NCBI RefSeq assembly: GCF_901000735.1
Contig: NC_081542.1
Span: 40,281,321 to 40,345,320, forward strand
DNA length: 64,000 nucleotides
Direction of reading: 5' to 3'
Source of the DNA: Corylus avellana
Lineage: Eukaryota; Streptophyta; Magnoliopsida; Fagales; Betulaceae
Part shown: in pieces, positions 10,897-49,413 of the stretch
Numbering within the stretch: the first letter of the stretch is position 1
Layout: each line of letters opens with the position of its first letter
Made by a program: the position numbers and the translations under genes
The notes under the pieces: generated by a model
Database searches by the model: none
Told to the model about the DNA's origin: nothing
The model's input: only the letters and a program-made list of their open reading frames with translations

Positions 10897-10934
<38 letters not shown>
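10897..10934. repeat. (TA)n tract at the viral integration site
   Basis: A pure TA repeat directly precedes TTGTTTTATAAG. The same TTGTTTTATAAG directly abuts viral sequence at 25,603, so this tract marks the unoccupied version of the integration site. Confidence 0.85.
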
Positions 10935-10939
<5 letters not shown>

Positions 10940-11771
10940 TTATAAGAAGTCTTATTTATATAGAGAAAAATATAAAAAAGCCCCTCAAATTACTAGCCGT
11001 TTGCAATATAGCTACACAATGTTCAAAATGTACTAAAGTAGCCTCTCAAACTACCAAATTGTATCAAAAATGCCACTTATTTTTTTATATTCCTATAATA
11101 CCCCTATTCTTTTAACAAATAAAATAATAAAATAATTGTAAAAATAAAAACCAAACAATTTTTTAAAAATATAAGAAAACCAATGGGCGAATAAAAACAA
11201 AACAAAAAAAGAATGTTTTTTTTTTTGAATAAATAATAAATAATTAATCACTGTAGTTAGCCTAAATTACAAATTGTTTTATGTCCTATCAAAGTAAAAT
11301 CAAATGTATGGTTCTTAAGATATTCCAAAAAAAAAAAAAAAATATAGTCCTGAAGTCAAATTCTGTACCTTTGATTTTACTTTAATACAACATGAAGTAA
11401 TTTGTAATTTAAGCCAACTACAATGACTAATTATTTATTATTTATTCCAAAAAAGTTTCTTTTTTTTTTTTTTTTTATTCACCCATTGATTTTCTTGTAT
11501 TTTTTTTAAATTGTCGTACCTTTGATTTTAATTTAATACAACATGAAGCAATTTGTAATTTATATCAACTACAGTGACTAATTATTTATTATTTATTTCA
11601 AAAAACTTTTTTTTATTTTTTTATTTGCGCATTGGTTTTCGTGTATTTTTTTCAAATTTTTTTTTTTTTTTACAATTATTTTATTATTTTATTTGTTAAA
11701 ATAATAGGGGTATTATAAGAATATAAAAAAAATAATAATAATAAGTGGCCTTTTTATACAATTTGATAGTT
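10935..11771. repeat. 837-bp copy of 25,603-26,439, ending at a gap
   Basis: The two segments have the same length and appear identical by eye, including an 11-T and a 16-A homopolymer. It contains the left TIR and body of the MITE at 25,631-26,526, truncated by the gap. Exact identity next to a gap points to an unmerged contig overlap or two haplotypes sharing a flank. Confidence 0.85.
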
Positions 11772-11871: not shown

Positions 11872-12426
11872 CTAACAGAAGATGTAGATCTCCACATTAT
11901 GACACACAAACTAGACTCATAATCACTCACTGGGTGAAGTCTTAAAGGATCTCATCCTAGGTACTCACTCACTGTGTAAACAGTCTCTGAATAAAGGCTT
12001 CTTCCTAAGACACTAGACTATCTGCACATACCCTTGGCCTAGCCCTTTGGTGAAACTATCCACACATACCCTTGGCCTAGCCCTAAGCTGAAACCAGAAC
12101 TATTCGCACATACCCTTGGCCTAACCCACAGCTCTTCTTCACGCCCTGACGCCAACTCCAGGCTTAAGCGGGACTTACAGATACCTCAACACTGTAGTGA
12201 CGGGGTGGCGAACTACCGTTCCTTACAACAGAGGTGACGGGGTGGTGGACTATCGTTCCAACAAAAGTGACGGGGTGGCAGACTACCGTCTAACAACCTA
12301 GGATCTCGACACAGAGAAAGGTTAACAGGGGGTAAATAAAAAGGAGGAGGCAAAGACTATGCACTCAGGGGGGGAGAAAGAGAGAAGATGTATAATCAAG
12401 GCAGCAAAGAGACCGACAACACTCAC
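11872..12426 (-). promoter_or_regulatory. Caulimovirid leader downstream of the primer-binding site (minus unit)
   Basis: Reading on the minus strand, this follows the primer site and precedes where ORF1 should begin, beyond the gap. It carries three copies of a ~25-nt motif containing GCCACCCCGTCAC (about 12,196-12,285) and three copies of GGGCTAGGCCAAGGGTATGTG (about 12,025-12,125). No long frame is open on the minus strand. Assignment as leader rests on position; the function of the repeats is unknown. Confidence 0.6.
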
Positions 12427-12439
12427 GGCTCTGATACCA
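12427..12439 (-). promoter_or_regulatory. tRNA-Met primer-binding site of the endogenous pararetrovirus
   Basis: The minus strand reads TGGTATCAGAGCC, the standard plant reverse-transcription primer site complementary to the 3' end of initiator tRNA-Met. It lies about 0.5 kb downstream of the viral TATA box, as in Caulimoviridae. The plus-strand unit ends before its equivalent site. Confidence 0.85.
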
Positions 12440-12461
12440 AGGAGGGGGGGGGGTGGAAGCG

Positions 12462-12794
12462 CAGTATGCATATAGATGCCGGGGATGAGGGATAGGTGAT
12501 AATAGATGCAGAACATAAGCAGTTGAAAATCAAAGCAATAGAACCGACCAGTATGGCGGTATGACAATTGATAAAAATAAACAACTGAAAATTAAAACAG
12601 TTGATTTTTCTTCTTGGGAATGTTCATAGTTAACCACGTCCGGTGATGATCAGTATGCATATAGATGCAGGGGATGAGGGATAGGTGATAATAGATGCAG
12701 AACATAAGCAGTTGAAAATCAAAGCAATAGAACCGACCAGTATGGCGGTATGACAATTGATAAAAATAAACAACTGAAAATTAAAACAGTTGAT
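12462..12794 (-). repeat. 144-bp tandem duplication in viral leader
   Basis: Bases 12,462-12,605 recur at 12,651-12,794 with almost no change. They are separated by a 45-bp spacer that starts TTTTTCTTCTTGGG. The plus-strand unit has a single copy of the shared part before it ends at 25,602. Confidence 0.9.
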
Positions 12795-13412
12795 AGAAAT
12801 AGATAACAGATAATCGTTAGAGATTATACAGATAAAAACCTAAGCTTGAGTAAGCGTCAAGACTTACTGAAGTAAGGATAAGAAGAAGGAGAAGAAGAAG
12901 AATGGCTGGAGGATAGAGTGTCTCAAGGAACCTCTCAAAAAAAACCTCTGCCTTACAATGGGGGAGGGGAGCCCGTTATATAGGCTTCAGAAAAGTAGAA
13001 ACAGTAAATTACAATCATTAGCCGCGTCCATGCGGTCAAAGGTAAACAGTAAAAAGTAAACAGTAAAGGCACGTCTGGCGCCAGTCTGAACAGTGAAAGC
13101 ATCAATCTGGAACAGTAGATTGTCGGCACTGTAGTGTCGGCTGACAAATCTTGGACAGTGAGTGAACAGTGCATCTGAACAGTAATCCTGCGCGTGTCGT
13201 CCGGACATGAACAGTAAAAGTGAACAGTGATTTTGCACAGTAACTCCAAGTATAAATGAACAGTGATCCGTCTGAGATCAAGGAGAACCAAATAATCCGA
13301 AACCAGCCGTCCGGGCTAGTTCTGTCGAACTGAACTATACTGGCCGTTTGTGGGGCTAGATAAAACTGAACTTTGAGGACCGTTAAGGGTCCAATTCTTC
13401 TCATGTCTTCAA
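12714..13412 (-). promoter_or_regulatory. Viral common region: promoter and leader start (minus unit)
   Basis: On the minus strand this runs from a GAAGACATG just past ORF2 to a GATTTTC in the leader, and is collinear with 24,862-25,602 on the plus strand. It contains about ten ACTGTTCA or ACTGTT(T) words upstream of a CTATATAAC TATA box (12,975-12,984). A conserved CCCCCATTGTAAGGCAGAGG follows, likely near the transcription start. It would drive the pregenomic RNA. The main difference from the plus copy is a ~42-nt insertion in the latter. Confidence 0.75.
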
Positions 13413-13563
13413 CCCCGAATTATTCTTCATTGTCAGGAGGACCAATAGAATCAAGATAGTTTTGAATCCATTGCTTCTTTTTTGAACAATATTTGGGGAC
13501 AGGAGGAGTAGGTGCAGAAAATGGAACAAAGGCATCATATCTGCTGGTCATAAGCTCAACTTT

Positions 13564-14529
13564 TTAAACAATGGGACCAATTTTTGGAGACATTGTCCAA
13601 GTTTTGCACATAAACCATCGCCTTTCAATTTTCTCTTGATTTCTGGTATATTTCCATTTGAGAAACCAAGGGATTCTGAATTCTCTGGCAAAATAAAGCA
13701 TGGGAGAAAAAATAGGGTTGTAATGAGCAATAAAGCCTTTACAGCCAACATGGGAAGAGAAAAGGTGGAAAGCATAAACAAGAGGACCGGGAAGAACTTC
13801 AATTGTTAGGCCAAAATAATCCCACCAATGTTTGAACCAAGAGGGAAGCTGGCAATCGAAATCTTCAATGAAAGTTATGAACCAAAAGTGTTTGGATTCG
13901 GAATTCTGGTAAAGCATGAAGCGAAACCAGGCATTGACATAGTCATAATATGAGAAGCAAACTGGGGAATTAGAAGATGGAAGAAGCTGAGATGGGTGAG
14001 AACCCCACTCTTCCACAGAGATGAATTTAACAATATAGGCAACAGTCCCGATAGCCGTTAAAGGGTTATCTTTTTTGGGAATATTCCTAAATTTGATGGA
14101 CTTGGTTTTGATCAGAATATCAGTGAAAAATGATAAATCCTTCAAAGGATGCTCAGGAATCCAATGGAAATGAGCCGGGAAATAATTGAAGGCTAACTGT
14201 CCAGGAGTCCTGGAGAGATCTTGGGTCGAAAACAAATATTGGGAGAATGGTAGGGTAACCCAGGGGAAAGACAAAACAATTGGGTTAGAATTTGGTTCCG
14301 TCTGAGAACCTGGTTGGGAGCTAGATTCCGTCTGGGAAACTGAAGCAAGGGGAATATAACCATGAAAAGCAGAAGAATCTGACTGGACAATAAGTGGGGA
14401 TTTCCCAAAAACTGTCGAAGTATGGGTTACAGGTTCTCCAAGAAAGTCAAGGGGAATCATGTCAAGTGGGATGGAGGGGCAAGGCTTCAAAACAGAGTTA
14501 ACCTTTTCCTTTCCCTTGTTGCTGGCCAT
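13564..14529 (-). pseudogene. Endogenous caulimovirid ORF2-like protein (minus unit)
   Basis: This minus-strand frame of about 321 residues begins MASNKGKEKV and overlaps the end of the upstream pol frame by 32 nt. It has a conserved core (HWIPEHP, then YYDYVNAWF and LPSWFKHWWDYFG) shared with the divergent plus-unit ORF2. Biochemical function is unknown; an ORF2 downstream of the polyprotein is characteristic of florendoviruses. Relative to the plus-unit protein it ends early at TAA (13,564-13,566). Minus-strand codons remain open for a further ~40 positions beyond, so the stop may be a nonsense mutation. The start codon follows CTTGCAG by six bases (TGCCAC), a possible 3' splice site also present in the plus unit. 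Confidence 0.7.
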
Positions 14530-16821
14530 TGTGGCACTGCAAGAATTCACGGGTAAGAAAATCAGGTATTGAATTGTTTGAGCCTTTGATGTATTCAATA
14601 TCAAAATCAAAAACACTCAAAATAGCTTGCCATCTGGCAAAAATCTGTTTTGATGCAATATTTTCAACATCTTTTTTCAAAATATACTTGGCAGATTTAC
14701 AATCGATTCGCAAAAGAAATTTTTGATTGAGCAAATCAGATTGAAATTTGGTAATGCACAAAACAACAGAAAGTATTTCTTTCTTAATAGTACTATAATT
14801 AATCTGCGCAGAATTCCAAGAACCAGAATGGAATCGAACAATTTGTTCAGAAGGTTCTGGGTTAGATTCTGATGAAACAACTTGTTTCAGGATACCTCCA
14901 AAGCCAATATCGGAGGCGTCAGTATCTACAATCTTGAAAGAATTATCAGAAGGGATGCCTAGACATGGAAGAGTCTTGACATGGAGTTTGATTTCTTTGA
15001 CAAGAGAGGTATGGGTATCAGTCCAAGGGGGAGGATTGCCTTGCAACCTTTCAAATAAAGGTTTACAATGTTTACGCAAATCCTTGTAAAAATCAGCAAT
15101 ATAATTTAAAGAACCAAGAAACCTTTGAAGCTGGGATTTCTCAGTGATGACATCGGGAAATTTATCAGCAAACTGAATCGCCCTGTCAATAGGACGAATC
15201 TGACCTTTAGAAATATCAAACCCAAGAAATCTGACTTTATCTTGGAAGAGTTTGATCTTTTTGGCAGAAACAACAAGTCCGTTGTATCGAATGGTTTCTA
15301 GAAACGATTTCAAATGTTTCCAGTGTTCATCGATGGACTTTGAGAAAACAAGGACATCATCAATATAAACAATGGTGAAATGGCTGAATGGGTTGAAGAT
15401 ATCGTTCATGATATTCTGGAACTCACTCGGGGCATTTTTCAAACCAAAAGGCATGACATTCCACTCATAATGACCAAAAGGGGTAGTAAAGGCCGTTTTG
15501 TACCTATCACTATCCTTAATCTGGACTTGCCAAAAACCTGACTTTAAATCAAACTTAGAGAAGACAACAGCGTCGTTCAGACGGCTGACCAGATCCTTCC
15601 TATTGGGGATAGGATACCTAATCCACTGTAAAACATCGTTGAGGGGCTTGTAGTTAATGACTAACCTTGGAGCACCTCTTTCTAACTCAGCATTTTTCAT
15701 GACATAAAAAGCAGCACAAGACCAAGGAGACTTACTCTTTCGAATAATACCCTTAGTAAGCAAATCAGCAATTTCTTTTTGACAAAATTCTAAAGTTTCA
15801 GCATTCATTTGAATAGGCCTAGCTTTAGTAGGAATTTTGTTTTCAGAGAAATCTTTAACATAAGGCAAAGAAACAATATGCTTTTTCCTATGCCAAAAAG
15901 CATTAGGAAAATCAGAACAAACAGAATCAACAATCAAGGTATTGAAAACAGAAATTTTTGATTGCAAAAGCTCGTCCGAGAGTTGTTCAGCAATCTTTTT
16001 ATACCTTAATTCTTGTTTGAGGAAATTGAGTTGTTTATGCTTAGCAGAAACTAAATTTAAACAACCGTTATCAATTTCAGATTTAGTAGCAAAAGGAAAT
16101 TTAACTTCAAATCCCATCTTAACAGTTGAGACACCTGTGTCATCAATTGTTATGGGGTAAAGCATGGCAATGAAAGGTAAACCAAGAATGACTTTGTCAG
16201 TCATGTTTTTAACCAAAACAGCAGGGATATGAAAGCAAACATTGTTCTGACAAACATGAACATTGTTTAATTCATACTTGATGTTTAACTTTTCTCCACT
16301 GGCTGAATGCAGCCGTTCTGTGGATTTTTCAAAATATTTGCTGGGGATTAAACCTTCTTGGATGCAATTTAAATCAGCACCAGAATCAATCAAAGCCACA
16401 ACATCAAGGGAAAAATCAGGAGAAACAATGATATGCACGTTAGAATGCCATTTGGGGGGAACAACTTTGTTGATTAAATTGACAAAATGAGTTTTGTCGG
16501 AAACAGAGATGGGGAGTTGCTTATTCTTTTTTAAATCAACCATTTCATTCCTGATATTACGAATCTCGTATTTCAAGTCTGAGACTGTAACTGCTTTGGA
16601 TTTTTGTTTTGAAAATTTTTCCAAAGTTTTCTCAGGAGATGTTTTAGTATTGCTTTGTTCTTCTTGATTAGTCAGAACAGAACAAGTGCTAATACATTTA
16701 TAGTTGATTTTATTAAGAAGAGCATGCTCAAAATCTTTCGTAGGATTGAGAGATCCGTTAAAGATCTTTTGGAGGTTAAATTCCATTTCAATCTTACCAA
16801 AGTTTTGTTCAAGAATTCTGG
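14498..16821 (-). pseudogene. Endogenous caulimovirid protease-reverse transcriptase-RNase H (minus unit)
   Basis: A long minus-strand frame remains open from the head-to-head junction near 16,822 to 14,498. In order it holds a short remnant of the polyprotein (QNFGKIEME near 16,800), an aspartic protease with LIDSGAD (about 16,370-16,400), a reverse transcriptase with YIDD (15,357-15,368), and an RNase H with VDTDAS (about 14,915-14,935). Compared with the plus unit, the coat protein and CCHC knuckle are absent, yet the frame stays open across that joint. The enzyme would copy pregenomic RNA into DNA. The frame also reads about 50 codons into antisense movement-protein DNA beyond the junction, which is not genuine. 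No integrase is present, as expected for Caulimoviridae. Confidence 0.85.
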
Positions 16822-17074
16822 TTATAATATGGAAGAAGGTAGCCATCCTGTTGCTATCATCTACCGTATTTATTACAAGTTGATGAAAACAAATCTTGAT
16901 CCACGTGCTGTGATTAAGAAAACTGGCGAATCGACTCTGTTGATTCAGAGCTCTACTCAGAATGCTCATATTAAAACTCCAAAAATGATTCGGTGGGCTG
17001 AGATTGAACTCCCCAACGAGTGGCTTTTGGAGAATGTTGCAAAACCTTCTCGAGTAGTCAACGATGCCTCTAAT
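16822..17074 (+). pseudogene. Movement-protein C-terminal fragment, cut by gap
   Basis: This is plus-strand viral sequence starting at the head-to-head junction and identical in kind to 19,857-20,108. It includes a GGTGGGCTGAG variant where the second copy has GGTGGTCGGAG. It encodes an ELPNEWLLENVAKPS-type segment typical of the end of the movement-protein domain in plant caulimovirid polyproteins. It stops at the assembly gap. Confidence 0.7.
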
Positions 17075-17174
17075 NNNNNNNNNNNNNNNNNNNNNNNNNN
17101 NNNNNNNNNNNNNNNNNNNNNNNNNNNNNNNNNNNNNNNNNNNNNNNNNNNNNNNNNNNNNNNNNNNNNNNNNN
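17075..17174. other. 100-N scaffold gap
   Basis: Exactly 100 N. Sequence right of it (17,175-20,108) repeats sequence left of it (14,140-17,074). Confidence 0.99.
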
Positions 17175-17564
17175 CTTCAAAGGATGCTCAGGAATCCAAT
17201 GGAAATGAGCCGGGAAATAATTGAAGGCTAACTGTCCAGGAGTCCTGGAGAGATCTTGGGTCGAAAACAAATATTGGGAGAATGGTAGGGTAACCCAGGG
17301 GAAAGACAAAACAATTGGGTTAGAATTTGGTTCCGTCTGAGAACCTGGTTGGGAGCTAGATTCCGTCTGGGAAACTGAAGCAAGGGGAATATAACCATGA
17401 AAAGCAGAAGAATCTGACTGGACAATAAGTGGGGATTTCCCAAAAACTGTCGAAGTATGGGTTACAGGTTCTCCAAGAAAGTCAAGGGGAATCATGTCAA
17501 GTGGGATGGAGGGGCAAGGCTTCAAAACAGAGTTAACCTTTTCCTTTCCCTTGTTGCTGGCCAT
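17175..17564 (-). pseudogene. Second copy of ORF2 N-terminal part, cut by gap
   Basis: Matches 14,140-14,529 nearly base for base. It encodes the first ~130 residues of the minus-unit ORF2 and then ends at the gap. Likely the same locus on another contig rather than an independent insertion. Confidence 0.8.
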
Positions 17565-19856
17565 TGTGGCACTGCAAGAATTCACGGGTAAGAAAATCAG
17601 GTATTGAATTGTTTGAGCCTTTGATGTATTCAATATCAAAATCAAAAACACTCAAAATAGCTTGCCATCTGGCAAAAATCTGTTTTGATGCAATATTTTC
17701 AACATCTTTTTTCAAAATATATTTGGCAGATTTACAATCGATTCGCAAAAGAAATTTTTGATTGAGCAAATCAGACTGAAATTTGGTAATGCACAAAACA
17801 ACAGAAAGTATTTCTTTCTTAATAGTACTATAATTAATCTGCGCAGAATTCCAAGAACCAGAATGGAATCGAACAATTTGTTCAGAAGGTTCTGGGTTGG
17901 ATTCTGATGAAACAACTTGTTTCAGGATACCTCCAAAGCCAATATCGGAGGCGTCAGTATCAACAATCTTGAAAGAATTATCAGAAGGGATGCCTAGACA
18001 TGGGAGGGTCTTGACATGGAGTTTGATTTCTTTGACAAGAGAGGTATGGATATCAGTCCAAGGGGGAGGATTGCCTTGCAACCTTTCAAATAAAGGTTTA
18101 CAATGTTTTCGCAAATCCTTGTAGAAATCAGCAATATAATTCAGAGAACCAAGAAATCTTTGAAGCTGTGATTTCTCAGTGATGACATCGGGAATTTATC
18201 AGCAAATTGAATCGCCCTGTCAATAGGACGAATCTGACCTTTAGAAATATCAAACCCAAGAAATCTGATTTTATCTTGGAAGAGTTTGATCTTTTTGGCA
18301 GAAACAACAAGCCCGTTGTATCGAATGGTTTCTAGAAACGATTTCAAATGTTTCCAGTGTTCATCGATGGACTTTGAGAAAACAAGGACATCATCAATAT
18401 AAACAATGGTGAAATGGCTGAATGGGTTGAAAATATCGTTCATGATATTCTGGAACTCACTCGGGGCATTTTTCAAACCAAAAGGCATGACATTCCACTC
18501 ATAATGACCAAAAGGGGTAGTAAAGGCCGTTTTGTACCTATCACTATCCTTAATCTGGACTTGCCAAAAACCTGACTTTAAATCAAACTTAGAGAAGACA
18601 ACAGCGTCGTTCAGACGGCTGACCAGATCCTTCCTATTGGGGATAGGATACCTAATCCACTCTAAAACATCGTTGAGGGGCTTGTAGTTAATGACTAACC
18701 TTGGAGCACCTCTTTCTAACTCAGCATTTTTCATGACATAAAAAGCAGCACAAGACCAAGGAGACTTACTCTTTCGAATAATACCCTTAGTAAGCAAATC
18801 AGCAATTTCTTTTTGACAAAATTCTAAAGTTTCAGCATTCATTTGAATAGGCCTAGCTTTAGTTGGAATTTTGTTTTCAGAGAAATCTTTAACATAAGGC
18901 AAAGAAACAATATGTTTTTTCCTATGCCAAAAAGCATTAGGAAAATCAGAACAAACAGAATCAACAATCAAGGTATTGAAAACAGAAATTTTTGATTGCA
19001 AAAGCTCGTCCGAGAGTTGTTCAGCAATCTTTTTATACCTTAATTCTTGTTTGAGGAAATTGAGTTGTTTATGCTTAGCAGAAACTAAATTTAAACAACC
19101 GTTATCAATTTCAGATTTAGTAGCAAAAGGAAATTTAACTTCAAATCCCATCTTAACAGTTGAGACACCTGTGTCATCAATTGTTATGGGGTAAAGCATG
19201 GCAATGAAAGGTAAACCAAGAATGACTTTGTCAGTCATGTTTTTAACCAAAACAGCAGGGATATGAAAGCAAACATTGTTCTGACAAACATGAACATTGT
19301 TTAATTCATACTTGATGTTTAACTTTTCTCCACTGGCTGAATGCAGCCGTTCTGTGGATTTTTCAAAATATTTGCTGGGGATTAAACCTTCTTGGATGCA
19401 ATTTAAATCAGCACCAGAATCAATCAAAGCCACAACATCAAGGGAAAAATCAGGAGAAACAATGATATGCACGTTAGAATGCCATTTGGGGGGAACAACT
19501 TTGTTGATTAAATTGACAAAATGAGTTTTGTCGGAAACAGAGATGGGGAGTTGCTTATTCTTTTTTAAATCAACCATTTCATTCCTGATATTACGAATCT
19601 CGTATTTCAAGTCTGAGACTGTAACTGCTTTGGATTTTTGTTTTGAAAATTTTTCCAAAGTTTTCTCAGGAGATGTTTTAGTATTGCTTTGTTCTTCTTG
19701 ATTAGTCAGAACAGAACAAGTGCTAATACATTTATAGTTGATTTTATTAAGAAGAGCATGCTCAAAATCTTTCGTAGGATTGAGAGATCCGTTAAAGATC
19801 TTTTGGAGGTTAAATTCCATTTCAATCTTACCAAAGTTTTGTTCAAGAATTCTGGT
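17533..19856 (-). pseudogene. Second copy of protease-RT-RNase H, frameshifted
   Basis: Near-identical to 14,498-16,821 with scattered substitutions. One base is missing in a short A run at about 18,193 (GGGAATTT versus GGGAAATTT at ~15,160). This splits the frame between the reverse transcriptase and the RNase H. The protease LIDSGAD and RT YIDD motifs are retained upstream of the break. The base loss may be a real allelic mutation or a homopolymer sequencing error. Confidence 0.85.
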
Positions 19857-22800
19857 TATAATATGGAAGAAGGTAGCCATCCTGTTGCTATCATCTACCG
19901 TATTTATTACAAGTTGATGAAAACAAATCTTGATCCACGTGCTGTGATTAAGAAAACTGGCGAATCGACTCTGTTGATTCAGAGCTCTACTCAGAATGCT
20001 CATATTAAAACTCCAAAAATGATTCGGTGGTCGGAGATTGAACTCCCCAACGAGTGGCTTTTGGAGAATGTTGCAAAACCTTCTCGAGTAGTTAACGATG
20101 CCTCTAATCTTGATTACATCCAACAATACATGGATGGATCTGTTAAAATCAATTTTGCTGATTTGGGATATTCAAACAGAATTGAACGTCCCCTGTTGAT
20201 TAACGAACGAAGGAATTCTTTTGCGGGTTCAACAACCTCAGAAGGACTCCGTCGTAGAGATAAAGATGTCGACGAATCCCTTAACGATTCTCCTCATCTT
20301 CATCCCACAGTTAGTCCTGGTTTGAAACTCAAAGGAATTTCCACCGATTCCCAAGTTTCATCTGCTTTTTATTCTACGAAAAATCATCCACTGACGGATG
20401 ACGATCGTGGATCTCTTTCTCCCTCTGCTTCTGATTTTGTTGCTCCTATTCCTTCTGATTTTCCCCATCAGTGTAATGTTATCACTGCCCACATCAAAGA
20501 TTTCTTCTCTGTCATTGATTGGAAAGCTTTGAACAAAGATTTTTCTTCAAAAGAAAATCGTGAGTTGCGGCATTCTTACCGTGCCAAATATTCCCAAAAG
20601 GAACGAGATCGTATCAAGGTCCAATGGGCCGAAGCTATGATCGAGTCCCAGACTCACATTTTGTTTTTTGATTTTCTCCAAAAACATTTTCCGGACGAAA
20701 ATGATTTGAACGTTGTCAAAAAGAAGTTTGTCAGAGAGGATAAATCTGAAATCAGATCTTCCCATCCTCCTACTGAGACCACTCTTCTTAATGTCAACAA
20801 CATGGTTATCAAGTGTTCCCCTTTCAAAACTCATGATAAGGACCCTATCACGAACGATAGGAGAATCATCGAGCAAAACAATTTTATTTCCGAATCCATT
20901 CATATCATAGGTCAACAGTTAGATCGGATTGAAGATAAACTTCCCTCTTCTTCCTCTGATTTAAAGTTTTCCCCTGTTCCCCCAAAGATTGAAAAACCAT
21001 TGATTTCTCTCCCTGATTTAAAGAAATCTCCTGGTTTAAAGACCACTTCTCAGAAGAACACTGAGAAAGTGAACAAATTGCTTGCTGAACTGACCGAGTT
21101 AAAAACGACTCGTGCCAGTACCTCTGGTCAGAATTTTGCCATGGAAAAAGCTTTTTCCACTGATTCTGAATCCTCTGCTGATTCCACAGATTCTGACATC
21201 AAAGTTCTTGAACAAAACTTTGGCAAGATTGAAATGGAGCCAAAACTCCAAAGGATCTTTGACGGATCTAGAACTTTCAATCAGACAAAGAATTTTTATC
21301 CAAAACCTACCCCTCCTGATTTACAATTTGAGGAGAGGTTTTTGCAAACTCAATTTTCTGTTTCTGCTGATAAGCTGTATGAATGGAACATTGATGGTTT
21401 ATCTGAGCAAGAACTGCTCAACAAGATGAATCACATGGCCATGGTTGCTAATGCCTACATCTCAAACCACAGTAAAAGTCAAACTGATATTGTGGATTTA
21501 CTTGCTACTGGTTTTTCTGGTACCCTTCGGAATTGGTGGGATAATTATCTCACTGAGGACAGAAGAAACCAAATCAGGAAAGCAGTAAAATGTGATGAAG
21601 AAGGTATACCCATTTTCAATGAGGACGTTGGCATGGGTGAACCTGATGGTGTTAACACCTTGATTTATACAATTATCAAGAATTTTGTTGGAACTCCTTC
21701 CAACATTACTTCTCGTATTTCTGATTATTTGAACAATCTTCGATGCCCTACTATGTCTGATTATAGATGGTATCAAGATGTTTTTCTTTCCCGTGTTATG
21801 ATGAGGTCTGATAGCCAAAAACCTTATTGGAAAGAAAAGTTTATTGATGGATTGCCCTCATTATTTGCTCACAAGGTTAAAGATGAATTGATCAGTACTG
21901 ACACTGGTCTTATTGATTTTGAAAGATTAACCTATGGAGATTTATTCTCCACAGTGAAAAAACTTGGTATTAAGATGTGCATCGATCAAAAAATGATCCG
22001 ACAGCAGCTTAAGAACGCCAAGAAAGCTAAATATGAAATGGGAAATTTCTGCGAACAATTCGGTTTGCCTCCTATTGCTCCTTCAAAGAAGCATAAGAAG
22101 AAAACAAGAAAAGATTTTGCGAAATCTTCCCCTCCATATTACAACAGAGCTAAGATAAGAAAATTTAACAAACCTAAATTTTCTAAACCTCCCAAACGGA
22201 GTAAAAGCTCTAAATTTGAAAAATATTTTTCAAAAGATAAATGTTTCAATTGTGGAGAAGCAGGACACTATGCTGACAAGTGCCCTAAACCTCCCAAAAA
22301 GATTAAACAAGAGATTAATGCTTTAAACATCAAGGACGATGAAAAGCAAAAGATTTTCAGAATTTTCCAAAACAATGGGTTTTCTGATTATTCTTCTAAT
22401 GATGATCTTCCATCCTCTTCGGATTCTGATTATCATTCTGATTCTTCTGTTTATGAAAATTGTTATAAATTTGAGAACTGTAACGGTTCTTGCTGCAACA
22501 CAAAAACTTGTTCAATGATGTCTAAATCAGAAGAACAAGAAGATTTGCTTTTAACTTTGATTTCAAAAATTGATAATCCTGAGTTAAAAGAAGAGTATCT
22601 TAAAAAACTTAAGAAACTCATGTTAAAAGATTTTGAAAAACCAGCTACTTCCAAAATCTCTCTTGAAGACACTTTGAAACGTTTTTCAAACCCGAAAAAC
22701 AAAGTGCTTACGGTCTCAGAGTTGCAGCATGAGATCAGTAACATCAAGAAAGATATTGTGAAATTGCAGACTGACCTGCAAGCTGTGAAAACTGAAAACA

Positions 22801-23786
22801 AAGATTTACAACAACAGCTTCTGCTGTTAAATCTTAACAAATGTTTTCCAGAAAGTGCTTCCAGTAACGAAGACACAAAAATTTCTGAGCATGATGATGA
22901 GGCTGAATCCACCCATAAACCTTTTTCTGATGAGGTTAAGGTTGTCAGTATGATTTCTAAAGTTGTTCCTCCTAAATGGTATTCAAAAATTCATATCCGT
23001 ATTTCTGATGAATATGCTTTTGATGCTATTGCTTTAATTGATTCTGGTTCTGACTTGAATTGCATTCAAGAAGATTTTGTTCCCAAAAAATATTTTGAAC
23101 CTTCCACTCAAAGATTAAATTCTGCTAGTGGAAACAAGTTGCATATCAAGTATGAGCTCGGTAACATTCATATTTTTCAAAAGGATGTTCGCTTTCATAC
23201 TTCTGCTGTTCTTGTCAAAAACATGAAAGAAAAAGTTATTCTTGGCATGCCTTTTCTTTCTTTGCTTTATCCATTTTCTGTTGATGAGGTTGGTGTTTCT
23301 ACTGTCAAATTTGGTACTAAAATTCAGTTCGAGTTCGTTTCCAAATTTGAGATTGATATTAATAGGTTGATTAATAGGTTTTCAGGACTAGAGTCTGATG
23401 AGTACCCTACTCCCATTAGGACTTTATCTTGTTTAAACACTCCCCCTGACGGTCGTGTTTTACCTACTGTTCATACCTGCACCCAGCACATGGCGCATAT
23501 TATTATAACTGTTTTACTTTGCATCAAAATAATTTTAAAATTATTTTGTGATATTTTAAAGATTTTTGCATCTTTATTCCTCATTTCTTTCCTTTTGAAA
23601 TTTTGCAGTGCCACCATGGCAGGCAAAAAAGATAAAGAGAAAGTTACTTCCAAGGCTCTGACCATCAAGTCAGAGTCTTCCATTGTTCCCATTGCCATTT
23701 TCATCTGTTGCCCTAACCAACAGATTCACCCCTTTTTGTCCTGGTTCCCAGGTTTCATATTCCAGCACTCTTGCTGCCCCCTATGA
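19857..23786 (+). pseudogene. Endogenous caulimovirid polyprotein: movement (C-term), coat, protease (plus unit)
   Basis: This is the largest open frame in the window. It formally opens at 19,689, but the first ~55 codons are antisense of the minus-unit pol, so viral sequence starts at the junction near 19,857. In order: movement-protein C-terminus (ELPNEWLLEN); a spacer with EQNNFISESIHIIGQQLDRI; a coat-protein-like domain with GTLRNWWDN, VNTLIYTIIKNFVGTPSN and YWKEKFIDGLPSLFA; a basic stretch; and a CX2CX4HX4C zinc knuckle (22,242-22,283). An acidic segment, a coiled-coil-like region and an aspartic protease with LIDSGSD (about 23,034) follow. There is no reverse transcriptase. After about 23,400 the frame runs into AT-rich spacer and the start of ORF2, so its last ~130 codons are probably not viral polyprotein. 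The N-terminal part of the movement protein is missing. Confidence 0.85.
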
Positions 23787-24873
23787 TCCCTTTGCGGATC
23801 CTTCCCAGAAACCCCCTGTCAAGTACGACCGGACGTCGTCAAAATACATGACCCTCCCCTACTCCCAAAATTTATTTTTTGTTGAGTTAAATCGGGTTTC
23901 CCCTTCCCTTACCCCCGGAGATATTGCCGTCTCCTATTTTCCTCCAAACTTTCATTGGATTCCTGAACATCCTTCGAAAAATTTGGCTTATTATTCTGCT
24001 ATCCTGAAACAAACAGGTTCTGTTTTCTTCAAGGTCATCCCTGATAAGATTAACCTCCAGAAAACAATTTACCACAGTGTTTATTTCAAGAGAATTATTT
24101 CGGAAAAAGAATGGGGTAATCACCCTTCTGATTCCAGGTCCCTGAACGGGTTTAACATCCCCTGTAATTATTATGATTACGTGGATGCCTTTTTCAAATT
24201 CTTGCTTCATCAAACCTCGAAATTTGAACATTCTTGGTTTGTCAGTTTTGATAAAGAATTTTCTGGTATTCTCCCTCTCTGGTTCTCCAGGTGGTGGAAC
24301 CAATTTGGTTGTCTCCCTGATATTCTCCCCCTCCAACTTGTTGATGCCTTTCAAATTTTCAAAGGCCATTACAAGGTTGATTCCTATGGAGCAAAGTTTC
24401 CAACTGTGCTTCATTTTGTTAAAAAATTCAAGATTCCTTGGATTCTGAGATGGCAATACCACCTCTCGGAAGACAAAATCCAAAGGCATTGGTATATCAA
24501 ATGGTGGGATAAATACTCACAAAATGATTCCATTGTCCTTGAGGTTAAAAACATGGCTCGCGCTCCCAAGGCCCTTCCTGCCCCAAAGGCGTCTGCCCTG
24601 TCTAATTTGTTGATTCCTCCCAGTGCTTTCTCATCTCCAAAACGAGAAAAAGAAAGTTCCCCTGCTTCCCCCCATTCGGCTTCTTCAAGCTCTTCAAAGA
24701 AGAATTCTTCCAAGAAGAAAGAAATGATTGAAGCCTTGCTTGCTGCCCTGGATACTTTAGAAGATGATGAAGACGAGACGTCCAAACCATCTGCTGAGAA
24801 GCCCATCCAGGTTCCACCATATTTTGAAGACTCACAAGACTACTACCCCTACCCAGGGGCTGAAGACATGTGA
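23616..24873 (+). pseudogene. Endogenous caulimovirid ORF2-like protein (plus unit), frameshifted
   Basis: The start at 23,616 sits in an excellent context, GCCACCATGGC, eight bases after TTTTGCAG. The first ~25 codons (MAGKKDKEKV) then shift frame near 23,690 relative to the remaining ~390 codons, which run to TGA at 24,871-24,873. The core shares HWIPEHP, YYDYVDAFF and LPLWFSRWW with the minus-unit ORF2. Overall similarity is much lower than between the flanking non-coding regions. The C-terminal third is Ser/Lys-rich and then acidic, and is not matched in the shorter minus-unit protein. Function unknown. Confidence 0.75.
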
Positions 24874-25602
24874 AGAATTGGGCCCCTAATGGTCCTCAAA
24901 GTTCAGCTTTATCTAGCCCCACAAACGGCTAGTTTTCTCAGGTTTTCTCCTGAAGACTGGCTTCATGACGGCCAGTATAGTTCAGTTCTACAGAACTAGC
25001 CCGGACGGCTGGTTTCGGATTATTTGGTCCTCCTTGATCTCAGACGGATCACTGATCATTTATACTTGGAGTTACTGTGCAAAATCACTGTTCACTTTTA
25101 CTGTTCTTGTCCGGACGACACGCGCAGGATTACTGTTCAGATGCACTGTTCACTCACTGTTCAAGATTTGTCCGCCGACACTACAGTGCCGACAATCTAC
25201 TGTTTCTAATTGATGCTTTCACTGTTCAAACTGGCGCCAGACGTGCCATGACTGTTTACTTTTTACTGTTTGCTTTTGACCGCATGAACGCGGCTCATGA
25301 TTGTAATTTACTGTTTTTACTTTTCTTAAGCCTATATAACGGGCTCCCCTCCCCCATTGTAAGGCAGAGGTTTTTTTTTGAGAGGTTCCTTGAGACACTC
25401 TATCCTCCAGCCATTCTTCTTCTTCTCCTTCTTCTTATCCTTACTTCAGTAAGTCTTGACGCTTACTCAAGCTTAGGTTTTTATCTGTATAATCTCTAAC
25501 GATTATCTGTTATCTATTTCTATCAACTGTTTTAATTTTCAGTTGTTTATTTTTATCAATTGTCATACCGCCATACTGGTCGGTTCTATTGCTTTGATTT
25601 TC
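24862..25602 (+). promoter_or_regulatory. Viral common region: promoter and leader start (plus unit)
   Basis: Collinear with 13,412-12,714 of the minus unit. It holds an ACTGTTC-word cluster (about 25,070-25,320), a CCTATATAAC TATA box at 25,331-25,340, and CCCCCATTGTAAGGCAGAGG at the expected start region. The leader then runs to GATTTTC. It has a 42-nt insertion near 24,922-24,965 not present in the minus copy. It ends abruptly at 25,602 against host DNA, before the primer-binding site. Confidence 0.75.
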
Positions 25603-26439
25603 TTGTTTTATAAGAAGTCTTATTTATATAGAGAAAAATATAAAAAAGCCCCTCAAATTACTAGCCGTTTGCAATATAGCTACACAATGTTCAAAATGTA
25701 CTAAAGTAGCCTCTCAAACTACCAAATTGTATCAAAAATGCCACTTATTTTTTTATATTCCTATAATACCCCTATTCTTTTAACAAATAAAATAATAAAA
25801 TAATTGTAAAAATAAAAACCAAACAATTTTTTAAAAATATAAGAAAACCAATGGGCGAATAAAAACAAAACAAAAAAAGAATGTTTTTTTTTTTGAATAA
25901 ATAATAAATAATTAATCACTGTAGTTAGCCTAAATTACAAATTGTTTTATGTCCTATCAAAGTAAAATCAAATGTATGGTTCTTAAGATATTCCAAAAAA
26001 AAAAAAAAAATATAGTCCTGAAGTCAAATTCTGTACCTTTGATTTTACTTTAATACAACATGAAGTAATTTGTAATTTAAGCCAACTACAATGACTAATT
26101 ATTTATTATTTATTCCAAAAAAGTTTCTTTTTTTTTTTTTTTTTATTCACCCATTGATTTTCTTGTATTTTTTTTAAATTGTCGTACCTTTGATTTTAAT
26201 TTAATACAACATGAAGCAATTTGTAATTTATATCAACTACAGTGACTAATTATTTATTATTTATTTCAAAAAACTTTTTTTTATTTTTTTATTTGCGCAT
26301 TGGTTTTCGTGTATTTTTTTCAAATTTTTTTTTTTTTTTACAATTATTTTATTATTTTATTTGTTAAAATAATAGGGGTATTATAAGAATATAAAAAAAA
26401 TAATAATAATAAGTGGCCTTTTTATACAATTTGATAGTT
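25603..26439. repeat. 837-bp copy of 10,935-11,771 (host flank of virus)
   Basis: Host DNA immediately right of the viral end. In the other copy the same bases follow a (TA)n tract instead of viral DNA. Confidence 0.85.
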
Positions 26440-26526
26440 TGGGGAGCTAATTTAGTATCTTTTGAACATTGGTGGGCTATATTGCAAACGACTGGTAGTT
26501 TGGGAGGCTTTTTTTATGTTTTTCTC
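25631..26526. mobile_element. Non-autonomous DNA element with ~115-bp TIRs
   Basis: The left end GAGAAAAATATAAAAAAGCC and the right end (reverse complement GAGAAAAACATAAAAAAAGCC) are followed by matching arms. These arms contain TACTAGCCGTTTGCAATATAG on the left and TACCAGTCGTTTGCAATATAG on the right. The 896-bp AT-rich body contains internal near-repeats and no coding region. The element sits in TA-rich DNA, so the target duplication is ambiguous. Related end sequences occur near 6080-6230 and 63,190-63,290. Confidence 0.75.

Positions 26527-26578
<52 letters not shown>
26527..26578. repeat. (AT)n(AG)n compound microsatellite
   Basis: An AT repeat runs directly into an AG repeat. Confidence 0.95.
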
Positions 26579-30372: not shown

Positions 30373-32249
30373 AGTGATGGATAATTTATGATGAAATGGA
30401 TGAATGTGAAAATGAGAATGGAAATGGTATTGATAATGAACTCCAATTAGGGTTGGAGACAGTAGCGGAGCGAGGGTTTAGGGAGGGGGGGTCACAGTTT
30501 CTTTTTTTTTTTTATGTATAAAAATAAATAAATAAAATCAAAGTTGAACAAAATTAATTAAAAATATTAAAATGTAATTAAAGCAAAAATTAAATATGAA
30601 AAAATTAGATTATATTTTAAAACATATAAATGTAACAAAATTAGATTGTTCATTTAGAATTTGATTGGAGCTCAATGGAATCGTTGTTGTTATCTATAAT
30701 CTCTAATAACTATAATTATAAATTTCATATAATTAAAATATGTAACAAAAATCATATACACTACAAAAATCAGAAATTTAATTGACATGGCAAATAGTAA
30801 CTCATGTTTGTCACGTCAATAATTTTTGACGTGACTAAATAAATACGTCAATAAACACTTTATTGATGTGTCTAAATGCCATGTCAATAATTTTTGATGT
30901 GCCATTATGACACGTCAATAATTATTGACGTATGTAAAAGCCAAGTCAATAATTTATTGACGTGAAGAAAGGGCACGTCAAAAATTTTTGATATGTTATT
31001 TTTAACGCGTCAAAAAATTTTGACGTGCCATTATTCCACACGTCAATAATTATAATTAATTATAATTATAATTAGGTAGTAAATTAATTATACAATATGT
31101 ATCAAAAAAAATTAGGTAGTAAATTAATTTTAATTGGTATGATAAATTAATTTTATCATATTGATATAAGTTAATTGGTATATATGTATTGTATACCGAT
31201 TAATATTATCATGCATAAATCAAACATTTCATTAATATTAATATGAAATGAAATGATAGCCATATTAATATGATATGATAGCATCATGCATAAATCATTC
31301 TAGTAATATTATGATGGATAAATCACTCTAGTAATATTAATATGATAGCCATATTAATTTTTAAAAAATAGGACATACAGGATACATTTATTTTATAAGA
31401 CCCGCAAACCCCACATGAACCCGGCCAACACAAAATATGTGTTCGGCGAGTCCTTCACTTATCTCAATTGTTCATTGATCCTACGGTGGAAATGCCTTGA
31501 AGCTAGATCTGATTCTCGGTGAGTGGATTATTGAGCCCTCACGAAAAAATGGATTTTATTATATGTACACCTAGAATATTAATTTATTTATTCTCTAATT
31601 AGTTTTAAGTATATTGTATTTATAATGTGTTATATAAGAGAAAAAAAATGATATAAATTAAAAATTTAAAAATTTATCTTTCCATTATTGCCGTGTCTAC
31701 TTATGACAAATGTGACACGTCAAGAATTTCTTGACATGTCCACATGTGGCACGTCAAGAATTTCTTGACGTGTCCTGTGTTGACACGTCAAGAATGCTCT
31801 TCGAGAACACGACTCATCCTCGACTATGTCACATTGACACAAATTCACCGATACATTATGTTTAACTCGGACGAGTTCCTTCAACTACGGACGTAAGTCG
31901 TGTTAGTAGTCTATGCAAGTTCAATATCACCTTGCACCCTTAGTTGTGAATTATAGTAGAACTAATTTCGTATTGTAGGATGCACATGGATACACTTAGG
32001 CAATCATGCGATAGGGGGCGAACGACAGAGGATTAGTTGAAAACCCAACATTATGAGTTGTTTTACAATTAGTACGTTGACTACGTAAGACTACCGTGAA
32101 GTTTAACTATTACAGTCTGATTATATTTACTTATGGTTCATAACAACTAACAAAACTAACTTCTTTATGGTCAATTGTACATAATATACTCATAGGCCGA
32201 TCGATTGGACGATCGACGTAGGAAGAAAATAGGTGACAAACTGGTAATG

Positions 32250-32812
32250 CATTGTAGAGGGCCGAAGGAGACAGCTACCAGATATAACAGATATGTAGTT
32301 AACGGGAAGCTCTTTCGCTCTCTTGCATTCGATGCCAGAAAGAGAACGTAGAACAACGGCGTGTGCGTGCCGACTGTTGATGGTGAAACGTATTACGGGA
32401 AGTTAACAGAAGTAATTGAGGTGGAGTAGTTCGACAGGACCAAGTACGTTCTGTTCAAGTGTGATTGGGCGGACAAAACGAGGAACAGGGGGTACAAGGT
32501 AGACAAGTATGGCATGATGCTTGTCAGCTTCAAAAAACTTGTCCACTGGGGCCAGCAAATTACTGATGAGCCGTATGTGCTAACGTCACAAGTTGACCAA
32601 GTCTTTTAAGTTGAAGATGAAATGGACTCTGATTGGGCTTGTGTTGTAAGGACTAAACCTAGAAACATATACGGTCAGGGTGAAGGTCCTGATGATGAAT
32701 GTGCCAACTACCACGAGTGTAAGCCACTCATATTGACCAGCAATAATGAAGTGGATCCGCAGGATGACATTGACTACATCCGACCAGACTTAGATCAAAT
32801 ATAATCATATAT
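32250..32812 (+). pseudogene. CACTA-associated DUF4216-like protein, decayed
   Basis: Translation shows GETYYGKLTEVIEVE, then FDRTKYVLFKCDWAD, VDKYGMMLVSFKKL and EPYVLTSQVDQVF. These match the DUF4216 domain that accompanies plant En/Spm transposons. A TAG (near 32,426) and a TAA (near 32,607) interrupt the frame. The last intact part (32,622-32,804) encodes DSDWACVVRTKPRN. It is duplicated on the minus strand near 57,350-57,960. Confidence 0.75.
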
Positions 32813-32902
32813 GGTCCAAAAAAATAAAATTATATATGTGGTGCATGTTTTATCTATTGTATACATAATTAATTGGGTGCATGATGTGTTTCACAGGTAG
32901 AT

Positions 32903-34698
32903 ATGAGTACCAGGAGGAAGAGTAGACAACAGAGGTTCTCACAGGTAGACGACCAGAGGTATAGACTAGTACTTCTAGAGCATGTGGAAGGGTAGACCCA
33001 AATGGGGTATCAATCTTAGTCATCTCCATACGACACGGACCGAGAGTATCATACGCCTACTTCGCTGTCTACGATGAGCGAGTTAGGGATATGTTCACAT
33101 GGCCATGTAGAGCAGTTATTCCCCCCCGCATATATAAGTTATGTAGTTAATATTGAATTCCAAATAATTAACATCAGTAATTATTAATGTGTTAGGCATC
33201 GATCGAGATGGGTACACCCACATTCAAGTGGTGACCATTAAACCATTGAACAAGACGTGGGATGTCCCCAACAGGCAAAAGGTCGTGTGCGAGTACAATA
33301 GAGCGTAGCAGCCCGTAGGATTTAGTGGGTTGAAATTTCGAAGGACGACCGACAATATCATAAGGAGTGGAAATTATGTTAGATTACGGGACGACTAGAC
33401 GGAGGTACCACCCCGTATGAAGAAAGATATATGGGACGCCTTGATAGTATGATTAAACTCTCTGTTATATTTTAGCATGTGTATTTCATTATGTCAAACA
33501 CTGTTAATGCACGAATTATACGCCTTACTTTTTTAACTTGTGTAGGCGGACTTCTACATCCCGTCTGAGTACAATCTCGATGCTATAAAAAATGATACGT
33601 TCCGAGATATGGGCGTGAAGCTGAAGAGTAGGAGACACTCAGTGAAAGATGCGATAAAAAATTCAGCCGAGCAACACTCCTGACACCGTGAAGGCGAGAA
33701 TGGGTCAAGATGTCGTTTCAAAATACAACGCCTATTACTTGGATGTGTTGTTAGATAAATGGTGCGACCCGAAGAATCGGGTAGGTTACGAGTGTAGTTT
33801 CATTAATTGTAATTGTGTTAGAGCTAACATATTAAGAATAGTATTTGTGTAGGAGTATACTGCTTATATGAAGGCATTGCTAGCAAAAAACAACACACCT
33901 CACTACACTGGGTCGATGAGCTTTGCTAGGGCGACACATGAAGAGATATTTGTCTTATTTACCGCATATATATAGATATATATACGTATCTAACTGTATG
34001 TTTATTTATTTATTTATTTATTTTTTTGATATTTTTTTTTATGCAGACCTTATCTTTGGGCACTACTCCTACTCGAGCGCAAACTTACATCTCGACACAC
34101 AAGAAGAAGGATGGTGACTATCCAAATGATGTGGTCAGGGAGAGATGTGTAAGTACTCACCGATATATATTTTGATAAATTATTTATGATTAACCTTCTT
34201 TATATGAGATACTAACTTGTTGTTTAACGTACAGGAGAGGATGAAGGAATTGATACCCACTAACCCGGCATTGACGTTGAGCGTGACTGAAGGGACGGTA
34301 CGGTGGACACCGAATGACGCGTATGCTCAGGTGGACGGAAATAAGCCTGAGTATCCTAGCAGGGTCCGACAAGTGGGTCCGAATGTTCTACCGGTGCAGG
34401 GCAGCATACATTCGTACTATACACCATCCCAGGCACAGTCGCAGAACCCTGGGGGAACTCCTTGTTCTCACAAATGACGGATAAGATTAGAGAACTTGAA
34501 AAGGAGCGAACACAACAAAGACGTGCGATGGATGAGATGATCAAACAGATTGAAGAACAAAAAGCTCAGATAGTAGAGAAAGATGCCATCTTTGAGGCCT
34601 GTTTCCGCCAGCTTGAGGCCATGCTCGCGTCGACCTCTGGATCCGCGCCCGACATAGGTAATGATATATTTCTGTTGTTTTTGTTATTCTTTGGTTAA
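32903..34698 (+). pseudogene. En/Spm-type transposase (Transposase_24-like), decayed
   Basis: A start at 32,903 (MSTRRKSRQQRFSQVDDQRY) is followed by broken exons. Pieces include an FYIPSEYNLDAI segment (about 33,545), THKKKDGDYPNDVVRERC (about 34,095-34,148) and a final coiled-coil-like piece ending near 34,655 (EKERTQQRRAMDEM). Such C-terminal pieces match the plant transposase_24 family from my knowledge. Stops and frame changes make it non-functional. Confidence 0.65.
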
Positions 34699-34889
34699 CA
34701 TGATTATAGCCCGTATCGATCACTTTAACGATTAAAATTGTGTCTCCACAAAAGTCTAAGTTAGAAACGCATTGTTTCCATGGTTCATTTTAGAACTAAT
34801 GTATATTTGCATCACTGAATATCTGTGTTTTGAATTTTTTATTGATTATCATTGCTTCACAACTCATTTGAAGGTAATGCAGATAAGGC

Positions 34890-35860
34890 ATTACTTGACC
34901 GAGACCTAACCGAGACCCCGCTTGGGACCTGACCGAGACCTCGCCGGGACGTGACCGGCACCCACCCAGGACCTGACCGAGACCCCGCCCGGGACCTCCC
35001 CTGGACCTCCCCGAGACCTCACCAAGACTTGACCAAGACCTGCCTGGGACCTGCCCGAGACCCGCCTAGGACTTGACCAGGACCTGCTCAGGACCCGCCC
35101 GAGGACCTCACCGAGACCCACCCGGGACCTCGCCGGGACCTGACTTGGACCCGCTCGAGACCCTGCGACAGAGACCCACCTAAGACCCGACCGGACCTGC
35201 ATGGGACTTGCATGGGACTTGCCCAGGAATCGCCCGGGACCTACCCGGGACTTCGCCTGGACCTCACCGGGACCTGCCCGGGACTTGACCAGAACCTGCC
35301 CGAGACCCGCCCGGAGCCCACTGAGACCCGGCTAAGACCCGACCAGACGTACCTAGGACCCGCACGGGACCTGACCGGGACTTGATTGGGACCCCGCCGG
35401 AACTTGCCTGGGACCCGCCCAAGACCTGCTTAGTCGGGTCCTAGTTAGGTCCCAATCAGGTTTCAGTGAGTCCCAGGCAGGTCCAGGGCGGGTCCCAATC
35501 AAGTCCAGGTCAAGTCTAGGGCAGGTCTCGAGCAAGTCCGATCGGGCCGTGGTCGGGTCCTAGGTGAGTCCCAGTCAAGTCCCGGGCAACTCTCGACGAG
35601 GTCCTAAGCAGCTCCCGGTGGGCGGATCCTACTCAAGTACGGGGCGGGTCTTAGTCAAGTCCTGAGCGGGTATTTTTATATTTTATTTTTAAAATTATTG
35701 TATATTAGTATTTATGTTGTGAATATAAAAACTATTTGTGATTTTTAGTGCATGCGCCAAACGCCGGAAATATTGTCATCGTAAAATATTTTCCTGTAAA
35801 ATGATTTTCCTGAAATATTTTATGACAAAAAACATTTTACGCCGAAACATAAAAAAATAA
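34890..35860. repeat. GGGACYTGMCC minisatellite with orientation switch and MITE-like end
   Basis: A degenerate 10-11-bp unit (GGGACCTGACC, GGGACTTGACC) fills 34,900-35,430. Near 35,430 it flips to the complementary orientation (GGTCCCAGGCAGGTC) until 35,670, so the two halves can fold back. A terminal block with AAAATATTTTCCTG and CATTTTACGCCGAAACA ends near 35,850. Arg/Ser/Pro-rich frames through it are repeat artefacts. Confidence 0.85.
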
Positions 35861-36360
35861 AAAAATAAAAAAATCTCACATAACTTCAAACTTACTGTCA
35901 CGGTGTCAGCCTCCCTCTGTTTTTTTTTTTTTTTTTTTAATTGAGTAAGGAAGGTGTCAGCCTCCCTCTTGTGTCAAGTGGATATGCGTTTTTTTTTTCC
36001 TTTAATTTCACGGTGTCAGACTTTGAGTTTTGTCAAGTTTACGCGTAGTGTGTCCCAGTGTTGCTTAAATTAGACGCAATTTGCTATAGAAAAGCGTACC
36101 GTTTGTATTAAATAAGACGCAGCATTTTCTTAACACTCCTAAAGGTACTAATTAAACTGATATTTATTCATAGCAGTGTCTTCTTCCTTCAGCAGTTGTG
36201 ATATGAAAGGTGGCGTGGTGGGTTCTAATAACAAACATCAATAGATTATAACTCTACTTAAACTAAAATTTTATAAAGAAATTAAGGAAAAAAGGGACAA
36301 AAAATCACTCAAGAGTGTTGCATATTCATAAACTGATCAAAATACATACACATGTCTTAC

Positions 36361-49359: not shown

Positions 49360-49413
<54 letters not shown>

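What the first reader, a model, noticed from the sequence alone, without database searches (positions are those of the whole stretch)
11872..25602. Head-to-head endogenous caulimovirid units that look like the two components of a bipartite genome
Seen: the minus unit encodes protease, reverse transcriptase and RNase H but no coat protein. The plus unit encodes movement-protein C-terminus, coat protein with CCHC knuckle and protease but no reverse transcriptase. Each then has its own divergent ORF2 and a collinear ~0.7-kb promoter/leader region. The non-coding common region is far more alike between units than the protease or ORF2 proteins. Both truncated polyproteins stay open across the missing parts. 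In the plus unit, the space between protease and ORF2 is a distinct AT-rich spacer (23,400-23,615), not a scar inside RT. Known (from memory): florendoviruses have a polyprotein plus ORF2, and a bipartite organisation has been reported in that genus. Inference: this locus may hold both components of one bipartite virus, joined head-to-head.
Basis: partly seen in the sequence, partly recalled or inferred. Interest (0 to 1): 0.86.

Follow-up and report, generated by a model that had tools for sequence, protein, structure and literature searches.

The report
Fossil pair of a divided plant virus
Two complementary, gene-deleted copies of an ancient plant DNA virus sit head-to-head in a plant chromosome and are most likely the two genome pieces of one divided virus, a kind of fossil already described in grapevine and rice.

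Summary
The two units are real and complementary. The minus unit has protease, RT, RNase H and ORF2 but only a coat stub. The plus unit has the movement-protein C-terminus, coat, zinc knuckle, protease and ORF2 but no RT. Their non-coding region is far more alike (90.9% with gaps counted) than protease (61% aa) or ORF2 (38% aa). This is the component A/B layout of bipartite florendoviruses (Geering 2014) and of complementary grass pararetroviruses (Chen 2017). Compound A+B insertions are also in print, so this is a new member of a known kind.

Corrections: 100-N gaps cut the locus, and an unmerged contig overlap probably duplicates the minus unit falsely. The plus 'spacer' looks like a shrunken RNase H remnant. 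A neighbouring contig looks like the empty TA-repeat insertion site.

Possibly new: all base differences between the two leaders stop at the TATA box (18 of 365 columns upstream, 0 of 269 downstream), as expected if strong-stop DNA moved between components. RT-deleted relatives with a like join exist. The window's two ORF2 genes are not sisters, but ORF2 type does not track component type among relatives. The host-genome search did not complete, so other copies were not counted.

The parts
10898..10934 (.). (TA)n tract on the neighbouring contig, directly before host sequence that also follows the virus: probable empty insertion site
10935..11771 (.). Host flank, identical to 25603-26439 (0 mismatches in 837 columns), reaching the contig end
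11772..11871 (.). 100-N assembly gap
12429..12439 (-). tRNA-Met primer-binding-site-like sequence of the minus unit (motif recalled)
   Evidence: pattern match
12462..12794 (-). 144-base direct repeat (12462-12605 and 12651-12794) in the minus leader
12714..13416 (-). Common non-coding region of the minus unit (promoter and leader)
13564..14616 (-). Minus ORF2 open frame (first ATG at about 14529)
14498..17074 (-). Minus ORF1 on the first contig: coat stub, protease, RT, RNase H, uninterrupted up to the gap; its first part, beyond the junction near 16816, is antisense of the plus movement protein
17075..17174 (.). 100-N assembly gap
17175..20108 (-). Second contig's copy of 14140-17074 (99.2% over 2935 columns): unmerged overlap, probably not a real duplication
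17644..17967 (-). RNase H domain (PF17917)
18246..18713 (-). Reverse transcriptase domain (PF00078)
19103..19540 (-). Minus protease region, alike to plus 22921-23358
19785..19849 (-). Coat N-terminal stub left in the minus unit (87.7% nt to plus 21205-21269)
19845..19856 (.). Head-to-head junction, about 19850
19857..20250 (+). Movement-protein C-terminal part; relative P0044 has about 179 residues before the matching point
20523..20693 (+). DUF7588 domain
21363..21584 (+). Coat-region domain DUF7746 (PF24925)
22239..22289 (+). CCHC zinc knuckle
22989..23258 (+). Aspartic protease (RVP)
23358..23575 (+).
23616..24873 (+). Plus ORF2: start codon in frame with ORF1, main open frame 23662-24873 in another frame
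24856..25602 (+). Common non-coding region of the plus unit; TATA at 25333; 0 mismatches in 269 columns from there to 25602
25603..26439 (.). Host flank after the virus, identical to 10935-11771

Best explanation
An endogenous compound insertion of the two components of a bipartite florendovirus-type caulimovirid. The minus unit is an A-type component (coat deleted; protease, RT, RNase H and ORF2 kept). The plus unit is a B-type component (RT and the N-terminal part of RNase H deleted; movement protein, coat, protease and ORF2 kept). Inferred life cycle: both carried the same promoter, leader and primer site, so RT made by A copied both RNAs and coat made by B packaged both. Exchange between components kept the shared region alike while the proteins drifted apart. 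Linear pieces of both were joined head-to-head and captured during repair of a break in a TA repeat. Shown: gene content, junction, conservation contrast, RT-deleted relatives. Inferred: joint replication, exchange, capture by break repair.
For: Complementary domains. Non-coding region 90.9% alike with gaps counted against 73% nt in the protease and 38% aa in ORF2. 18 of 365 mismatches upstream of the TATA box and 0 of 269 from it on (Fisher 4.4e-5). RT-deleted relatives: P0013 reads protease end, RNase H piece, ORF2 in one frame; P0041 and P0078 read coat, protease, RNase H piece. The two window ORF2 genes are not sisters (p 0.0005), so the units are not two fresh deletions of one parent. Protease dN/dS between units 0.23. 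Insertion at a TA repeat, the published preference. Published compound A+B insertions.
Against: Only one pair was seen; the host genome could not be searched. Neither unit is whole: the minus unit shows no movement protein before the gap and the plus unit lacks its N-terminus and the primer site. ORF2 type does not track component type among relatives (P0025 and P0030 cross over). The protease tree does not group the plus protease with the RT-deleted relatives (not rejected either, p 0.14). Several spacer comparisons were weak or not significant. Published conspecificity also asks for alike movement proteins, which cannot be tested here.
Confidence: 0.7

Rival explanations
1. Helper dependence rather than a true divided genome: the plus unit is a non-autonomous virus that borrowed RT from a complete virus, and the minus unit is a deleted descendant of that or another virus.
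For: A relative with coat, protease, RT and RNase H in one frame exists (P0042). Commensal partnerships of this kind are in print (abstract). ORF2 lineages of the two units differ.
Against: The minus unit lacks most of the coat, so it could not be the helper by itself; together the two are complementary.
Confidence: 0.17
2. Two different florendoviruses, each damaged at or after integration, that happen to lie side by side; their leaders are alike by one recombination or by selection.
For: ORF2 genes of the window are not sisters. Both units are truncated at the junction. Selection on leader RNA could also give the identical block.
Against: The RT deletion has a like join in P0013, P0041 and P0078, so it is older than this insertion. 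A shared control region with divergent genes is the published mark of partner components.
Confidence: 0.08
3. Assembly artefact: unrelated contigs or copies were joined, making a head-to-head pair that does not exist.
For: Six 100-N gaps and repeated contig ends. The differences between the two overlapping copies are patchy: none in a 1115-base stretch.
Against: The junction is inside one contig and recurs in the overlapping one. The viral-host edge matches a clean TA-repeat empty site.
Confidence: 0.05

Closest known systems
Bipartite florendoviruses, components A and B (Vitis vinifera B and D virus, Oryza sativa B virus, Sorghum bicolor virus; Geering 2014, PMC4241990: passages, section 6 and part 1 of section 12 seen)
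   Same: A lacks coat partly or wholly; B has movement protein, coat and protease, lacks RT and the N-terminal part of RNase H, and its polyprotein runs into an ORF2-like extension; near-identical intergenic regions; compound A+B insertions; TA-repeat sites
   Different: ORF2 of the two units differs strongly here (as the paper notes for rice and sorghum); movement-protein likeness is untestable here; no copy number here
Complementary non-autonomous pararetroviruses ePVCVL and ePVCVL2 of grasses (Chen 2017, PMC5491270: abstract, section 8 and passages seen)
   Same: Complementary RT-less and coat-less units; intergenic regions homogenised while protease is dissimilar
   Different: The authors found no fit with primer sites and favoured nuclear recombination; here the identity step lies at the TATA box
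Unnamed JGI relative P0042
   Same: RT 87% and RNase H 84% identical to the minus unit
   Different: Coat, protease, RT and RNase H in one frame; coat 72-73% and protease 55-59% identical, so not the direct parent

Membership tests
Florendovirus-type caulimovirid | Movement protein, coat with zinc finger, protease, RT and RNase H domains in ORF1, in that order | tested here: inconclusive
   Each domain is found, but split over the two units; order within each unit agrees
Florendovirus-type caulimovirid | Second ORF without homology to known proteins | tested here: met
   ORF2 present in both units; 0 Pfam families; 0 structural matches at E<=0.001 in PDB or BFVD for minus ORF2
Florendovirus-type caulimovirid | Placement in the florendovirus clade by protease-RT-RNase H sequences | not tested
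   No labelled florendovirus reference sequence was in hand; relatives came mostly unnamed or from plant gene models
Bipartite florendovirus (components A and B) | Component A: coat partly or wholly deleted, RT and RNase H kept | tested here: met
Bipartite florendovirus (components A and B) | Component B: RT and N-terminal part of RNase H deleted, coat and protease kept, ORF2-like extension | tested here: met
   No RT hit; RNase H remnant 2 of 2000 shuffles (moderate); ORF2 start in frame with ORF1
Bipartite florendovirus (components A and B) | Intergenic regions above 90% identical | tested here: met
   90.9% over 747 columns with 44 gap columns
Bipartite florendovirus (components A and B) | Movement protein above 87% nt identical between components | not testable with these tools
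   The minus unit shows no movement protein inside the window
Bipartite florendovirus (components A and B) | Many copies of each component in the host genome | not tested
   The genome search unanswered in 14 tries (first, last)

The most novel reading that the evidence does not exclude
The two components exchanged their leaders during reverse transcription: strong-stop DNA made on one component's RNA moved to the 3' end of the other's, so everything from the transcription start onward is held identical while the promoter drifts. This would make the pair one jointly reverse-transcribed divided genome and names a mechanism other than the nuclear recombination favoured in print.
Probability: 0.35. 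Interest if true: 0.65.

Novelty: new member of a known kind. Interest (0 to 1): 0.42.

Why it matters
A review says that divided genomes are not otherwise known among reverse-transcribing viruses of this order (passage, PMC10377300), so fossils carry the evidence. This locus adds a pair with both components in one insertion, RT-deleted relatives with a like join, and a sharp identity step at the TATA box. The step turns the open question of how the components stay matched into a simple test on many fossil copies.

Tried and rejected
Tandem duplication of the minus unit: set aside in favour of an unmerged contig overlap. Two scans of viral contigs, with an RT piece and a coat piece, confirmed no relative. 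A phage-collection search with the protease region gave one 42-base match. DNA alignment of the plus spacer with the RNase H end of the minus unit was not better than shuffles (229 against a shuffle maximum of 253). The protein comparison with RNase H was (2 of 2000; 0 of 1000 from one point on; 20 of 1000 for a shorter stretch). The same spacer against P0013: 0 of 500 with the ORF2-near end included, 33 of 1000 without it, 19 of 2000 end to end. Against P0041 and P0078 it was not significant (190 and 175 of 500, and P0041 406 of 1000; P0041 288 of 1000). A clean split of ORF2 types by component was dropped because P0025 and P0030 contradict it. That the two contig copies are plain neutral alleles was doubted because of 17 synonymous to 3 non-synonymous differences in ORF1. 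ORF2 fold: mean pLDDT 70.8; 153 PDB and 65 BFVD matches at E<=10, none at E<=0.001. Papers were searched for the organisation and for strong-stop or template switching; one search returned one paper, on HIV-1. Not finding the TATA-box step in print rests on these searches and on the terms counted in one paper.
Full report
What is there. The window is a gapped plant scaffold. Six runs of exactly 100 N cut it into contigs. The locus lies on a short contig (11872-17074) and the start of a long one (17175-51013). The end of the first and the start of the second share 2935 columns at 99.2% identity, and both copies run to the contig ends. That is the dovetail expected of an overlap that was not merged, so the apparent second copy of the minus unit is most likely an assembly effect. 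Two other contigs repeat parts of the long one; the longest shared blocks differ at 99 of 3384 and 58 of 2953 columns, as separated haplotypes would.

The two units. Pfam (ten pieces) finds RT and RNase H only on the minus strand, and the coat domain DUF7746, DUF7588, a CCHC knuckle and the RVP protease only on the plus strand. The minus protease had been cut between two pieces; it is recognised through the plus one (73% nt over 350 columns; 61% aa). The minus unit keeps a coat stub of about 22 codons. The next recognisable sequence seems to lie beyond the zinc knuckle (51 of 2000 shuffles, weak). The plus unit starts inside the movement protein: most relatives that reach this point align from its first residues, and P0044 has about 179 residues in front of it. 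The minus open frame that continues past the junction is antisense of that movement protein. The junction (about 19850) is inside a contig and recurs in the overlapping one.

The plus 'spacer'. The stretch from 23358 on aligns with minus RNase H with a score that 2 of 2000 shuffles reach; six control pieces gave 54, 387, 14, 216, 479 and 113 of 500. A plain DNA comparison did not reach significance, and comparisons with single relatives ranged from 0 of 500 to not significant. Three relatives show the layout more clearly: P0013 runs protease end, RNase H piece, ORF2 in one frame; P0041 and P0078 run coat, protease, RNase H piece. By eye, in all three and in the plus unit likeness to RT-bearing units stops at the same protease motif. 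So the plus unit most likely lacks RT and the N-terminal part of RNase H, the published definition of component B. Its ORF2 start codon is in frame with ORF1, as published for component B, but most of ORF2 lies in another frame.

Relatives. One search listed 120 of 131 significant proteins for a coat-to-protease query. Only candidates of 458-1458 aa and only the 7990 sharing most words were scored, so complete polyproteins are under-counted. By pieces, 4 of the 120 hold coat together with at least 150 residues of RT (P0042, P0050, P0057, P0103), and 7 of the 120 hold coat, RNase H and ORF2 without an RT match (P0073, P0095, P0098, P0121, P0137, P0139, P0140). These seven are annotated proteins of Carya (1) and Prunus (6) and may hide introns. 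Named sources are eudicots such as Castanea, Lithocarpus, Carya, Prunus, Malus, Rhododendron, Cajanus and Arachis. The host itself was not identified.

Trees. Protease tree (40 rows; hits without a protease match or with a span under about 110 residues were dropped; P0041 and P0078 were labelled RT-deleted by hand): both window proteases fall in a supported 10-row clade with P0160, P0041, P0078 and the P0042 group. Holding the two window proteases together is not rejected (p 0.62), nor is the plus protease with P0041 and P0078 (p 0.14). ORF2 tree (54 rows; spans under about 140 residues dropped): the minus ORF2 sits in a starred clade of 9 rows, on a long branch. Holding the window pair together is rejected (p 0.0005); the plus ORF2 may go with either clade (p 0.32 and 0.28). 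This speaks against two deletion products of one recent parent. Against a simple A/B reading, ORF2 type and component type are not tied among relatives: P0013 (in the other clade) is RT-deleted and P0003 (minus-like) follows RNase H, but P0025 (minus-like) has a B-like spacer, and P0030 (in the other clade) has upstream sequence like that of the minus unit (by eye).

The common region. It begins within about 20 bases of the plus ORF2 stop and runs to the viral end at 25602. Between 24968 and 25332 there are 18 mismatches in 365 columns; from the TATA box (25333) to 25602 there are none in 269, with one T-run length difference (Fisher 4.4e-5, the boundary chosen after seeing the alignment). The minus unit goes on to a primer-site-like sequence at 12439-12429. 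In this family strong-stop DNA spans from the primer site to the RNA 5' end (recalled), so its transfer between components would produce such a step. Selection on the leader could do so too, and the transcription start is not mapped. Chen and colleagues saw homogenised intergenic regions in grass viruses but no good fit with primer sites and polypurine tracts, and favoured nuclear recombination (PMC5491270); the terms TATA, transcription start and leader do not occur in the text held.

Selection. Protease dN/dS between units is 0.23, with synonymous sites near saturation; in ORF2 they are saturated. The two contig copies of minus ORF1 differ by 17 synonymous and 3 non-synonymous changes (3 further substitutions outside ORF1 were not classed), and no difference falls in a 1115-base stretch that holds the junction. 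That is not neutral decay. It suggests that virus-level variants were captured or mixed, by exchange between copies or by the assembler.

Insertion site. At 25602|25603 the virus meets host sequence that occurs again at 10935-11771, 837 of 837 columns identical, there preceded by a (TA)n tract. The simplest reading is that this neighbouring contig is the empty allele and that the virus entered at a TA repeat, the published preference. The left viral edge is not in the window. A duplicated flank or a third allele is not excluded: two filled copies and one empty site are more than one diploid locus needs.

Verdict. A new member of a known kind: a compound A+B insertion of a bipartite florendovirus-type virus. 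The layout, the homogenised region and compound insertions are in print. The step at the TATA box is the part worth following.

Noticed in passing
39742-40660: Two LTR-like direct repeats (385 bases, 94%) about 150 bases apart, each with a 5S rRNA match (Rfam), and a primer-site-like sequence right after the first: looks like a Cassandra-type small retrotransposon (name recalled)..
   Followed up: partly
51114-58172 and 58273-62990: Contigs that repeat 31985-38957 (reversed) and 46436-50951 of the long contig at about 94-98% identity: haplotype copies placed in series by the scaffolder..
   Followed up: partly
47065-50460: Host gene with receptor ligand-binding (PF01094) and ligand-gated channel (PF00060) domains, probably a glutamate-receptor-like gene (name recalled)..
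   Followed up: partly
25621-26535: Inverted terminal arms (117 bases, 78%) frame the host flank, so the virus entered beside a probable small inverted-repeat transposon..
   Followed up: no
13564-14529: Minus ORF2 gives a partly confident model (mean pLDDT 70.8, first 85 residues disordered) with no fold match at E<=0.001 in PDB or BFVD: possibly a fold of its own..
   Followed up: yes
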